Shown one piece after another: positions 35,137-42,943 of a stretch of 64,000 nucleotides of DNA. The notes under the pieces were generated by a model. The model saw nothing but the letters and a program-made list of their open reading frames with translations. It was not told the DNA's origin and searched no databases. The position numbers were made by a program, and so were the translations under genes. This DNA comes from a virus: positions 186,001 to 250,000 of IMG/VR virus record IMGVR_UViG_3300043418_000114; one strand, written 5' to 3'. Each line of letters opens with the position of its first letter. Positions within the stretch are counted from its first letter, which is position 1.

Positions 35137-35808
35137 TTATCTCCAAAGTAAATCAAAGTTGCCAGCTAGTACTTTAGTAGCATTAGCAACTTTACCTGTT
35201 AAGTGATCTTGAACTTTATCATCTTGGAAACGATATGTGCGAATCTTGTCACCGCGCATGCCAGAACCAACCTGAGTCTTTCTATCACTAGCTATTTCGT
35301 TATTGTACATCATTTGGTTATTGCTGTCAACACGTTCTTGTATTGCACTCAATGCTTCGTTATAGCTATTCTCACGGCTACGACATTGAGCCGTTGCAAC
35401 TACGCCGCTTGGGATGTGCGTGATTCTGCAACTGTTTTGATGCTTGTTACGATGTTGACCACCTGCACCAGTGCCACTATACCATTCGATTCGTAAATCT
35501 TTTTGTTGTATAGTTGTTGTGATTTTAGCAGGATCGATAACGGCAACTGTCACTGTGCTTGTATGCACTCGACCTTTGCGTTCTGTTGGCGGTACACGTT
35601 GTATTCTGTGTCCACCTGGCTCGTTGTATAAGCCGGATAAATCAGTACCCTCTATCTCTAGATGGATCTCGCCTTGATGCTCATTTATCAGGCGGGTAGT
35701 TCAGCCGAGCTTGGAAGCCATGCGAATATAAGACTTCGCTAAATCTTTTACAAACAACTTACTGTCATCGCCACCTTCTGCGGCTCTAATCTCAATTACA
35801 CGTTTCAT
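35137..35808 (-). CDS. Class-I release factor (RF1-like) with in-frame TGA
   Basis: Start ATG 35808 after AAAGGAG. The frame encodes IEIRAAEGGDDSKLFVKDLAKSYIRMASKLG, then TGA at 35701-35703 (codon 36), then continues in the same frame: GGHRIQRVPPTERKGRVHTS (RF1-type PxT region), GTGAGGQHRNKHQNS (GGQ peptidyl-hydrolysis loop) and a full C-terminus. The N-terminal domain of bacterial RFs is absent, as in short phage/organellar types. The TGA stands where RFs usually have Trp. Product depends on readthrough, frameshift-free suppression or is broken. Confidence 0.85.
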
Positions 35809-35870
35809 GATATTCTCCTTTAATTGTGTTGAGTATTTATTATACACTATAAATCCGTATCTGGAAATAA

Positions 35871-35908
35871 GAATGGCCGGACACTTCCACCACAGAAGCC
35901 CCGGCCTT
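35871..35908 (-). terminator. Hairpin, possible terminator
   Basis: Minus strand AAGGCCGG ... CCGGCCATT followed by a modest T-rich tract; 6-7 bp GC stem with a ~20-nt loop. It could end the RNA running out of the Ro-like gene before the release-factor unit. Confidence 0.45.
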
Positions 35909-35909
35909 A

Positions 35910-36262
35910 GTTGTTTACACTGTCTCACGTTATAGTTTCTGGAAACTACTATTCGTCAACCTAGGGCTTTGTCCGTATCCTGAAATTGGATCGTGTAGTA
36001 GTCCCTATGCACTAAACTACGTTGTGGTTGTAGTCAATACCTCACACATCATAACGACTGTGTGACGCCGGGTTTTAGGTTTGATATGTCACTAAATGCT
36101 CAATCCTGAGAAAGATTTTACGGCATGCCAGCATTTTTTACTGTGAACAGAAGGTGTCTCGGATACTATTTTAAACTTCTTCATATCAAATTAGGGGTTG
36201 AATGATTAGGCTGACTCCTGGGCGTCCCCTGGCTTTATTTAAAGTGACTCACACTCACCTAA
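35910..36262 (-). ncRNA. Gene-free structured RNA region downstream of the Ro-like gene
   Basis: No coding frame. On the minus strand several closed helices follow one another: TGATTAGG/CCTAATCA (8 bp), TTTGATATG/CATATCAAA (9 bp, ~100 nt apart), TCACACA/TGTGTGA (7 bp) and TAGTTT/AAACTA. This looks like a string of small structured RNAs rather than an untranslated tail. Function unknown; Ro-bound RNAs are a possibility given the neighbour. Confidence 0.5.
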
Positions 36263-36273
36263 TCAATCAGTAG

Positions 36274-37695
36274 TTACGACAAGTCGTAACGTGTCTTCAT
36301 CACTGTCTTCAACATGACGGCTTCTGGTGTGAAGTCTTCCAAGTCGTTAGACAATACAGAAGTTGCTAGTGCTGGGCTAAAGCCTGACACTAGTGCAGTA
36401 CCACTCTTATCGAATGACACTGGTGTGTTACCGTAACTTGCGTTCAAGTTCCAGAAGACAACTTTTGGAAGTGCGTAGCCTGCGGCTTCGTACTTACGTG
36501 CGATCATTTGCATCGCGGTGTCGTCATGCTTAACACATTGGTTAAATTGCATGTCTGAGAAGATAACAAGAGTTTCAGGCATTTCTGCTTGTGGAACACT
36601 GTTTTCTGTCGCAGTCTTCAGGATCTTTTCAAACGCCTTGTGAAGGTCTGTACTCATATCCCAGTTAGACTTGACCATTTGGTCAATCTTTTGGTTGATG
36701 TTACCCTTTAGGTGCATCAATTCTGGCTTGCTTGAGAAGGTCAAGAAGGTATCTTTGAACTTACCCTTGTTCTTATCAGCAAAGTACAAACCTAGGCTAA
36801 CAGCAACTTCCATGCAAGACAGGTTGCTCTTAGAGCCATGACCACCTGCTGGACAAGACATTGAACCAGAAACGTCAACCAGAGGAAGAACGTTTGCATC
36901 GCCAACGTAGTTAGGCATTGCTTCCCATTGCTTTTGGATCAAGTCAGTTTCAGTCTTGTTAAACTGCATCCAACCACCAATACGACCCTTCAGTACGTCA
37001 TATGGGAACACTGCGCCTGCGTTAACCTTAACACCAGCTTCGCCCTTAACGAGCTTAGTTACATATTCAGCGTATGTAGTACCATGACGGCCAAACGCTT
37101 TCTTGTAACGTGCATGTGCCACTGAAGGAACATGTGAGTAGTTGATGTTATCCCAATTTTGGGCACACATTTGTGTTTCAACAACATTAGTAAGGCCGAC
37201 TAGGCTCTTACGATATTGTTTAGGGGTCATTCCGAAGAATTGACGGATTTCACGTGCTACTTCACCTTTACGTGGAGTCCACTTAGCCGCAAGACCGTTA
37301 CCTGCACGTAGTGCATCGCCGAGCATAGTGTATGCCTTGGCCTTCACAGGCTGAGTCTTAAACACTAGCAAGTCGTCGTAACGACCCAATTCTGGAATCT
37401 TAGCCATCAAACGCATTGCGTCTTCTGGGTTAGTCTTTTCCAAGTGAACGAGGATGTCTCGGAAGACTTGACGTTCACCTGAACCACCACGTGCATCACG
37501 TGCCCATTGAGCGATACGCAATGCAAGATCAGAGTTCTCTACATAAGCCGCTGTGAAAGCCGGCACGATGTTTTTACCACGGCTTGCACCGATGTTGTAA
37601 AACAAATCAACACATGCGTTAGCACTTGATTTGCGAGCCTTCATACCATTGGTGGTACGAGTTGATTGATTCTTAACTGCTTCTGCGAATTGCAT
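36274..37695 (-). CDS. Ro60/TROVE-like vWA protein (DUF2828 type)
   Basis: 473 aa. Residues ~1-240 are helical repeats resembling the TROVE ring of Ro60 (e.g. NIVPAFTAAYVENSDLALRIAQWARDARGGSGERQVFRDIL, IPELGRYDDLLVF); ~265-470 is a von Willebrand A domain with intact MIDAS DVSGSMS (Asp274, Ser276, Ser278), VIFSDMQFNQC and FWNLN. Ro60 proteins bind Y RNAs and misfolded RNAs and help RNA decay. Structured RNA flanks the gene on both sides, and a sigma-70 promoter lies at 37793. Ribosome site AAAGGAG. Confidence 0.85.
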   Translation of the reverse strand: MQFAEAVKNQSTRTTNGMKARKSSANACVDLFYNIGASRGKNIVPAFTAAYVENSDLALRIAQWARDARGGSGERQVFRDILVHLEKTNPEDAMRLMAKIPELGRYDDLLVFKTQPVKAKAYTMLGDALRAGNGLAAKWTPRKGEVAREIRQFFGMTPKQYRKSLVGLTNVVETQMCAQNWDNINYSHVPSVAHARYKKAFGRHGTTYAEYVTKLVKGEAGVKVNAGAVFPYDVLKGRIGGWMQFNKTETDLIQKQWEAMPNYVGDANVLPLVDVSGSMSCPAGGHGSKSNLSCMEVAVSLGLYFADKNKGKFKDTFLTFSSKPELMHLKGNINQKIDQMVKSNWDMSTDLHKAFEKILKTATENSVPQAEMPETLVIFSDMQFNQCVKHDDTAMQMIARKYEAAGYALPKVVFWNLNASYGNTPVSFDKSGTALVSGFSPALATSVLSNDLEDFTPEAVMLKTVMKTRYDLS

Positions 37696-41200: not shown

Positions 41201-42083
41201 TGGAGCACTGAGAATACATGCTTACCGAGTAACACCTCAGACATTATTACAATCCTTGCGAGACTGCTTTCTTCTGACTTCCACTGCAACCTCTTGCGAG
41301 TATCACAGTCTGTTACCAACATCGCCGTTTTAAGTCAGGCATTAGACTTGACGCTGTATGCTATTCTACGCTTTCTATCCCGTTGACCTTTAGAGCCATT
41401 CACTACCGCTAAGTAGTTACGAAACTTCCTGCATAAACAGATTTCACCTTGCGAGTTACGTCTGACTGGATTATCTTGCGACTCCAGTATTAGATGCTTT
41501 TCACATACAACCGAGACAGACTTTGCTTTTTTAATCGATAGAAGGGATCGAACCTTCAGCCGACTGCTTGAAAATGCAGTTGATCTACCATTGATCTATA
41601 TCAACCTACTGTGATGTGCTGTCTCAGTTGCTTCATAATCTTTTGGACTACAAAATACAACACGCCACGTACCTTTTGTCTCGCGGACTACTCAGTCGTC
41701 TTTCACGATTAATGTCGGGTCTCGGCTTTCGCGTACCTCCATCAACCATTCAAACTGCATTACAACTCTTAGATGCGACTCCTCGAATCATAACACTACC
41801 CTTTCTCATACCAATTAACTGGACTGGTTTTGTCGTGAGGTCAGCACCACCTGTTACTCTCTAATGACTTGCGTTACCCTCGATATTATCTCAGGCGCTT
41901 AAGCCACTAATTCTTTCCACAACTTCCAGCGTCATTGTTATCACCACCGGTCTTATCAGTGATGAAACCCTCGCGGGTTTGAGCAGGCTTGCTTAGATGA
42001 ACTATTTCTAGCGCGGGTCTGTAGGAGACTACCGCTTTGGGCCGATCACTCGGCTTATTCTAATGAGGCTAAGCCCCCATAAA
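41201..42083 (-). ncRNA. Large gene-free structured RNA region with an embedded tRNA
   Basis: About 880 nt without a credible gene. The minus strand repeats CTCGCAAG three times plus GTCGCAAG (41255-41490), has GNRA-capped hairpins AAACCC-GCGA-GGGTTT (41965-41980) and GCCGA-GTGA-TCGGC (42042-42055), and encloses a tRNA (41533-41605) in a GAGACAG/CTGTCTC helix. Size, tRNA neighbourhood and an internal tRNA recall the GOLLD RNA class; this is a hypothesis. Confidence 0.45.
41533..41605 (-). tRNA. tRNA-Glu(TTC)-like with 8-nt anticodon loop
   Basis: Acceptor GTTGATA/TATCGAT, D arm GATC/GATC, T arm GAAGG-TTCGATC-CCTTC are good. The anticodon stem ACTGC/GCAGT closes an 8-nt loop ATTTTCAA instead of 7, so TTC is the likeliest reading but not certain. 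CCA is not encoded. Lies inside an outer GAGACAG/CTGTCTC helix. Confidence 0.75.
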
Positions 42084-42867: not shown

Positions 42868-42943
42868 TGGCATCCCGGGAGGGATTTGAACCCCCAACTT
42901 ACGGTTTTGGAGACCGTTGCTCTGCCAATTGAACTACCGAGAT
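42868..42943 (-). tRNA. tRNA-Trp(CCA)
   Basis: Anticodon loop CTCCAAA on ACGGT/ACCGT; acceptor ATCTCGG/CCGGGAT; GCCA encoded. D-stem position 24 is G, so it is not the Hirsh-type UGA suppressor form. Confidence 0.97.

What the first reader, a model, noticed from the sequence alone, without database searches (positions are those of the whole stretch)
35137..35808. Release factor with an in-frame TGA at a Trp position
The RF1-like gene is open in one frame across TGA at 35701-35703; both sides align to RFs, and the TGA stands where RFs commonly have Trp after the ...LG/RR segment. In bacteria RF2 is autoregulated by an in-frame UGA with +1 frameshift; here +1 does not stay open, so simple readthrough is required. 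The phage's own tRNA-Trp is CCA with G24. Could be a new readthrough-based control, a recoding signal, or inactivation.
Basis: partly seen in the sequence, partly recalled or inferred. Interest (0 to 1): 0.82.

Follow-up and report, generated by a model that had tools for sequence, protein, structure and literature searches.

The report
Release factor made by stop-codon readthrough
A huge phage carries a small translation-termination factor whose own gene is interrupted by a stop codon (UGA) that must be read through; the same interruption is kept in more than 100 related phage genes and in sporadic bacterial copies, together with an RNA hairpin just after it in the phages, so the cell's stop-codon machinery appears to control production of a stop-codon-reading protein.

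Summary
The minus-strand gene 35808-35137 is a domain-1-less RF1-like release factor, open in one frame except for TGA at codon 36, where cellular RF1 has Trp. All 110 distinct phage/bacterial genes with that codon recovered keep TGA there; other Trp codons in the gene are always TGG, and canonical bacterial RF1s have TGG. Both sides of the TGA are under purifying selection, and UGA is an ordinary stop elsewhere in the window. Directly 3' of the UGA lies an RNA hairpin (7-nt spacer, about 62 nt) supported by compensatory changes, threefold lower dS and folding z about -3.4; the +4 base is never U (0/110). In outlying relatives the stop moves (codon 38, 39-57) or is replaced by an RF2-type +1 frameshift site (CTT TGA C, CTT TAG C): a bypassable stop is selected, not the Trp codon. 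Best explanation: programmed UGA readthrough, probably by near-cognate tRNA-Trp, gates synthesis of the factor. A 2016 review calls zero-frame readthrough unknown for bacterial RF genes; the nearest precedent is the Mimivirus eRF1 gene. Readthrough itself, its efficiency and the regulatory logic were not measured.

The parts
35137..35808 (-). Small (domain-1-less) RF1-like release factor gene, 223 codons, with PxT motif (RVPPTERKGRVHTS) and GGQ
35701..35703 (-). In-frame UGA, codon 36, at an RF1 Trp position; same codon in 110 distinct genes
35694..35700 (-). 7-nt spacer ACUACCC between UGA and hairpin; +4 base A (never U in the 110 genes)
35632..35693 (-). RNA hairpin (putative readthrough stimulator): 5' arm 35693-35674, 3' arm 35651-35632; weaker in the window than in most relatives
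   Evidence: covariation; codon-shuffle folding z; low dS
35302..35330 (-). Conserved sigma70-like promoter inside the 3' part of the gene (TTGACA, 17 nt, TACAAT here; TTGAC and TATAAT both exact in 63/81 genes), probably for the downstream gene; not part of the recoding
42868..42943 (-). Phage tRNA-Trp(CCA), 5-bp anticodon stem, U11-G24; candidate near-cognate reader of the UGA

Best explanation
The gene is expressed by programmed, zero-frame readthrough of an early UGA. Most ribosomes should stop after 35 codons; a fraction insert an amino acid (most likely Trp from near-cognate tRNA-Trp CCA), helped by a leaky context (UGA-A/G/C, never U) and a hairpin placed 7-9 nt downstream in most phage members, and make the full 223-aa factor. 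SHOWN by sequence: conserved UGA, coding constraint on both sides, hairpin with covariation, UGA used as an ordinary stop elsewhere in the window, no UCA-anticodon tRNA found. INFERRED: that readthrough happens, its efficiency, and the amino acid. INFERRED MORE WEAKLY (about 35%): the regulatory sense. UGA is read by host RF2, while the product carries the RF1 motif and should read UAA/UAG. When RF2 is scarce relative to demand in infection, readthrough rises and the factor is made; by taking over UAA termination it frees RF2 for UGA, closing an indirect negative loop.
For: TGA at codon 36 in 80/80 and 110 distinct genes, including Jiella, Thalassospira, Gemmobacter, Rhodovibrio, Sphingomonas and other bacterial loci and Bosea and Rhizobium plasmids; Trp109 and Trp222 always TGG. 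dN/dS 0.065 before and about 0.08 after the stop; dS 0.325 at codons 37-60 versus about 0.93 further on. Folding z -3.42 for the 66-nt window starting at codon 39 versus about -0.5 through most of the gene, 56 non-redundant genes. Covariation: 43 double-change cells versus 12.0 +/- 3.4, 0/500 shuffles; wider set 86 versus 34 +/- 7, 0/1000. +4 base U 0/110 versus 8/38 ordinary TGA stops in the window, p 1e-5. TGA ends 38 of 87 window ORFs. Stop shifted to codon 38 in L384, which the tree nests in the UGA36 group; L214 and L192 use +1 frameshift sites CTT TAG C and CTT TGA C.
Against: No expression data. RNAalifold does not recover the hairpin, one subgroup uses a shifted register, and several phage and bacterial members have no clear hairpin at this place. 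The hairpin of the window itself has mismatches. One distant huge-phage factor (L193) has no internal stop at all. If this were direct autoregulation, an RF1-type factor should use UAG, not UGA.
Confidence: 0.85

Rival explanations
1. Pseudogene or sequencing error: the TGA is a nonsense mutation of TGG.
For: Single window read in isolation; TGA is one step from TGG.
Against: Same TGA in 110 distinct genes from independent assemblies, including isolate genomes; low dN/dS on both sides; no other stop in those genes.
Confidence: 0.01
2. Genome-wide reassignment of UGA to Trp in these phages (code 4), so nothing special happens at this codon.
For: The codon sits at a Trp position; the phage encodes many tRNAs.
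Against: TGA ends 38 of 87 window ORFs, many in overlapping gene junctions; Trp109 and Trp222 are TGG in 81/81 and 80/80; no tRNA with UCA anticodon in the window or among 1264 redundant tRNA calls in all loci; bacterial carriers have an ordinary RF2 match.
Confidence: 0.02
3. UGA encodes selenocysteine, the hairpin being a SECIS element.
For: UGA followed by a downstream hairpin is the bacterial Sec arrangement (own knowledge); hairpin.
Against: The site is Trp in canonical RF1s; tRNA-Sec model hits were weak and, where re-scanned, were tRNA-Ser or CUA tRNAs; the UGA moves to non-equivalent positions in relatives. SelA/SelB were not searched.
Confidence: 0.02
4. The two parts are made separately: a 35-aa peptide and a C-terminal factor from an internal start.
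For: Variovorax plasmids are annotated as two CDS around the stop.
Against: First in-frame ATG/GTG/TTG after the UGA in the window is GTG at codon 81, after the PxT motif; amino acids 37-60 have the same dN as the rest.
Confidence: 0.05
5. Readthrough is real but unregulated: the UGA merely keeps the amount of a potentially harmful termination factor low at a fixed ratio. (A variant of the best explanation that differs only in the regulatory sense.)
For: Excess release factor is harmful: RF2 strongly, RF1 mildly, in B. subtilis (PMC12421855); a hairpin could give a set efficiency.
Against: A fixed low dose could be had by a weak start site; retention of a stop through changes of position and recoding type suggests that sensitivity to termination matters. 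Not decisive.
Confidence: 0.4

Closest known systems
Mimivirus/Megavirus class-I release factor (R726/mg280), Jeudy et al. 2012, PMC3521657
   Same: Virus-encoded class-I release factor whose gene needs UGA readthrough; outlying relatives of ours also use a +1 frameshift
   Different: That factor is of eukaryotic/archaeal eRF1 type, in an amoeba virus, and needs both events in one gene; ours is a bacterial-type RF1 relative in phages and bacteria with (in the core group) one event and a conserved 3' hairpin
Bacterial prfB (RF2) programmed +1 frameshift (PMC12421855, PMC5009743)
   Same: Early in-frame UGA in a release-factor gene, bypass needed for the full protein
   Different: Ours stays in frame, has no CUU UGA C at the site, has a downstream hairpin, and belongs to an RF1-type factor. 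PMC5009743 calls the zero-frame version unknown. PMC12421855 finds no UAG in the prfB motif, yet L214 (RF1-like) shows CTT TAG C
Canonical RF1 (prfA)
   Same: PxT and GGQ motifs, domains 2-4 fold
   Different: No domain 1, far below the prfA family cut-off, TGA instead of TGG; searched carriers also have normal prfA and prfB matches
PrfH
   Same: Truncated release-factor relative
   Different: Weak match only (45.5 bits versus cut-off 166.65)

Membership tests
Class-I release factor, RF1 type (prfA) | PxT codon-recognition motif and GGQ | tested here: met
   RVPPTERKGRVHTS and GGQ in the window protein and nearly all aligned members; L211 has PLG and L192 lacks PxT
Class-I release factor, RF1 type (prfA) | Full length with N-terminal domain 1 and score above the prfA equivalog cut-off | tested here: not met
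   Match starts at profile position 107; 201.6 bits versus 400
prfB-type +1 programmed frameshift | Stop bypassed by shift to +1 frame at CUU UGA C | tested here: not met
   Frame is the same on both sides in the window and in the 110 genes; seen only in outliers L192 (UGA) and L214 (UAG)
Programmed stop-codon readthrough | Stop conserved, coding constraint on both sides in one frame | tested here: met
Programmed stop-codon readthrough | Leaky context and 3' stimulatory structure a few nt downstream | tested here: met
   +4 base never U; hairpin with covariation 7-12 nt after the UGA; not clear in every member; stimulation itself not measured
Programmed stop-codon readthrough | Full-length product made in vivo | not testable with these tools
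   needs protein or ribosome-profiling data
Genetic code 4 (UGA = Trp) | UGA not used as stop; UCA-anticodon tRNA | tested here: not met
   TGA ends 38 of 87 window ORFs; no such tRNA found
Selenoprotein | tRNA-Sec and SelB present | tested here: inconclusive
   No convincing tRNA-Sec; SelB not searched
PrfH | Score above the PrfH cut-off | tested here: not met
   45.5 versus 166.65 bits

The most novel reading that the evidence does not exclude
Domain-1-less RF1-like factors of huge phages and some bacteria are almost always gated by a stop codon in the N-terminal part of their own gene. The recoding type is interchangeable (UGA readthrough at several positions, +1 frameshift at UGA or UAG), so the genes act as sensors of termination capacity: the factor is made when termination at the sensed stop becomes slow, and then restores termination, in competition with the host factors.
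Probability: 0.35. Interest if true: 0.93.

Novelty: new variant of a known kind. Interest (0 to 1): 0.86.

Why it matters
In-frame UGA readthrough was a control once considered for RF2 before its gene was sequenced, and a 2016 review (PMC5009743) states that no bacterial RF2 gene has it and that the RF1/UAG counterpart is unknown. Here it appears, conserved across more than 100 phage genes and in sporadic bacteria, with a structured RNA element beside it. It gives a natural, compact prokaryotic readthrough element to test, suggests that huge phages tune host termination, and explains why such genes are missed or split in annotation.

Tried and rejected
RNAalifold on the mixed and on the group-1 alignment did not find the hairpin; individual folds, codon-preserving shuffles and a named structure did. 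An alternative short hairpin CGCC/GGCG has no covariation. Pseudogene, code 4, selenocysteine and internal restart were considered and set aside (see rivals). Hirsh-type A24 or a 4-bp anticodon stem in tRNA-Trp as the general explanation: seen in many relatives' tRNA-Trp but not in the window, so not required. Searches of 385 genomes of the class of Gemmobacter, 369 of the class of the Hahella MAG, and three families found no further bacterial copies beyond the seed genomes, so bacterial occurrence is sporadic. In the tree rows RF2_L303 and RF1_L296 have branch length 10 and appear to be wrong-frame extractions of mine; they are ignored. Huge phages L188-L191 were first suspected of code 4; their TGAs lie only in the N-terminal part of the gene, and reading TGA as sense hardly raised coding density in three of the four 35-kb stretches (0.73 to 0.79 for LR756501, similar to the window's 0.66 to 0.72).

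Full report
OBSERVATION. The minus-strand gene 35808-35137 reads MKRVIEIRAAEGG...SKLG-(TGA)-TTRLINEHQGE...RVPPTERKGRVHTS...GAGGQHRNKHQNS...LLWR-stop; the only internal stop is TGA at 35703-35701, codon 36. Pfam finds the PCRF domain across the stop and the RF-1 domain after it. NCBIfam ranks prfA best but far below its cut-off, the match starting at profile position 107: the protein lacks RF1 domain 1. T. maritima RF1, a solved structure, aligns with Trp (AERKGWNLEV) at the site. An AlphaFold2 model with Trp at 36 is good (mean pLDDT 82.5, block around residue 36 about 93) and matches ribosome-bound RF1 best.

CONSERVATION. A first scan of viral contigs gave 80 relatives of 66-93% identity; all 80 have TGA at codon 36 and no other in-frame stop. 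More scans with distant queries brought this to 110 distinct genes with TGA there. This count covers genes in which codon 36 is TGA; the exceptions found among further relatives are listed below. A scan of bacterial genomes found the same small factor in Jiella, Thalassospira, Gemmobacter, Rhodovibrio, a Sphingomonas MAG and two other alphaproteobacterial MAGs, 45-51% identical to the phage query, again TGA at that codon. Plasmids of Bosea and Rhizobium leguminosarum also have it. The searched bacterial carriers also have separate, uninterrupted prfA and prfB matches. By contrast the canonical RF1 loci L215-L286 have TGG (71) or CTG (1), and the other two Trp codons of the phage gene are TGG in 81/81 and 80/80. 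Bacterial copies are rare: no more turned up in 385 genomes of the class of Gemmobacter, 369 of the class of the Hahella MAG, or three families.

NOT A CODE CHANGE OR PSEUDOGENE. In the window TAA ends 42, TGA 38 and TAG 7 of 87 ORFs. No tRNA with a UCA anticodon occurs among the 45 of the window or in 1264 (redundant) tRNA calls over all loci then held. dN/dS is 0.065 for codons 1-35 and about 0.08 for codons 61-222, and dN at 37-60 is the same as later, so the part after the stop is translated as part of this protein. An internal start would first be possible at codon 81, after the PxT motif.

A DOWNSTREAM RNA ELEMENT. Synonymous codons are unusually conserved at codons 37-60; dS there is 0.325 against about 0.93 further on. 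Shuffling synonymous codons within each of 56 non-redundant genes shows one strong signal: the 66-nt window starting at codon 39 has mean z -3.42, 88% below -1, while most of the gene lies near -0.5. Individual folds show a hairpin 7 nt after the UGA in most of the window's group, 8-9 nt in several others, and 12 nt in members of one subgroup with a shifted register. On 34 same-register sequences 87.1% of cells pair, with 43 double-change cells against 12.0 +/- 3.4 in shuffles (0/500), and sliding the partner drops pairing to 48% or less. Those rows were chosen by register, so a wider set of 52 ungapped rows, including the shifted subgroup, was also tested: 86 double-change cells against 34 +/- 7 (0/1000). 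Such shuffles do not keep relatedness, so the counts overstate independence. The window's own hairpin is weaker, with mismatches. RNAalifold missed it. Some phage and bacterial members lack a clear hairpin. The base after the UGA is A 77, G 24, C 9, U 0, whereas ordinary TGA stops in the window have U in 8 of 38.

THE STOP MOVES. In L384 codon 36 is TGG but codon 38 is TGA; the tree places it beside L363 (UGA36) inside the UGA36 group. A Variovorax plasmid (L401; three more plasmids give near-identical hits) has GGG at the site and TGA at the 57th codon of the ORF, about query residue 43, annotated as two CDS. Huge phages LR756502, LR745206, LR756501 and LR756504 have TGA at codons 52; 46 and 54; 39 and 52; and 44 of their genes. 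Two members replaced readthrough by +1 frameshift-like sites: L192 (AGG GGT CTT TGA C, the prfB pattern) and L214 from a Hahella MAG (TCT CTT TAG C, with the RF1 stop). L193 has no stop. Most of these variants rest on one contig each. Together they argue that a bypassable stop early in the gene is what is selected.

MECHANISM. Shown: the sequence facts above. Inferred: ribosomes read the UGA, most likely with tRNA-Trp CCA by near-cognate pairing. The window's tRNA-Trp has a normal 5-bp anticodon stem and G24. Many relatives' tRNA-Trp genes have A24, the position of the classical UGA-suppressor change, or a mismatched 27-43 pair; a 4-bp anticodon stem was shown to raise UGA readthrough in E. 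coli (PMC13092985). A24 also occurs naturally in some bacteria (own knowledge), so this is a lead only. Regulation: UGA is read by host RF2; the product has the RF1 motif. The simplest loop is that RF2 shortage raises readthrough and the new factor relieves RF2 by taking UAA; a fixed low dose is an equally simple rival. Neither was tested.

WHAT IS KNOWN. A review (PMC5009743) says that zero-frame readthrough of an early UGA was once considered for RF2 but no sequenced RF2 gene has it, and that the RF1 counterpart with UAG is unknown; it names one giant virus as exception. That is the Mimivirus/Megavirus eRF1-type factor with a UGA readthrough and a frameshift (PMC3521657). A survey of prfB found no TAG in its frameshift motif and no evidence of programmed frameshifting in prfA (PMC12421855). 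Ten full-text searches of open papers found no report of this phage/bacterial family; subscription papers and preprints were not covered.

VERDICT. A real, conserved and new variant of recoding-controlled release factors. Programmed readthrough is strongly supported by comparison but not measured.

Noticed in passing
window 35302-35330 (-): Conserved sigma70-like promoter (TTGAC, then TATAAT at 17-nt spacing; both exact in 63/81 genes) inside the 3' part of the release-factor gene, fixing synonymous codons 158-169; TTGACA/TACAAT in the window.
   Followed up: partly
window 41205-41668 (-): GOLLD RNA (Rfam RF02032, 203.5 bits) within the tRNA array; the odd tRNA with a four-base anticodon call (tttc, 41532-41606) lies inside it.
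   Followed up: no
window 35820-36273: About 450 nt without clear genes between the release-factor gene and a DUF2828/DUF7788 gene (36274-37695, phrog_850 RNA-binding protein); no Rfam match there.
   Followed up: no
L308, L318 15612-15770, L322 8385-8461, L323 6271-6345: Several related phages encode tRNAs with CUA anticodon (amber-suppressor-like), and two carry genes called as permuted tmRNA (L322, L323), while keeping the UGA-interrupted RF1-like gene.
   Followed up: no
L311, L313, L315, L328, L330: tRNA-Trp(CCA) genes of relatives often have A24 in the D arm or a mismatched 27-43 pair, features linked to UGA reading.
   Followed up: partly
L192 around 1090-1115: Huge-phage release-factor relative with a prfB-like +1 frameshift site AGGGGTCTTTGAC and without a PxT motif.
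   Followed up: partly
L214 3121-3127: CTT TAG C, a +1 frameshift-like site in a small RF1-like gene of a Hahella MAG contig.
   Followed up: partly
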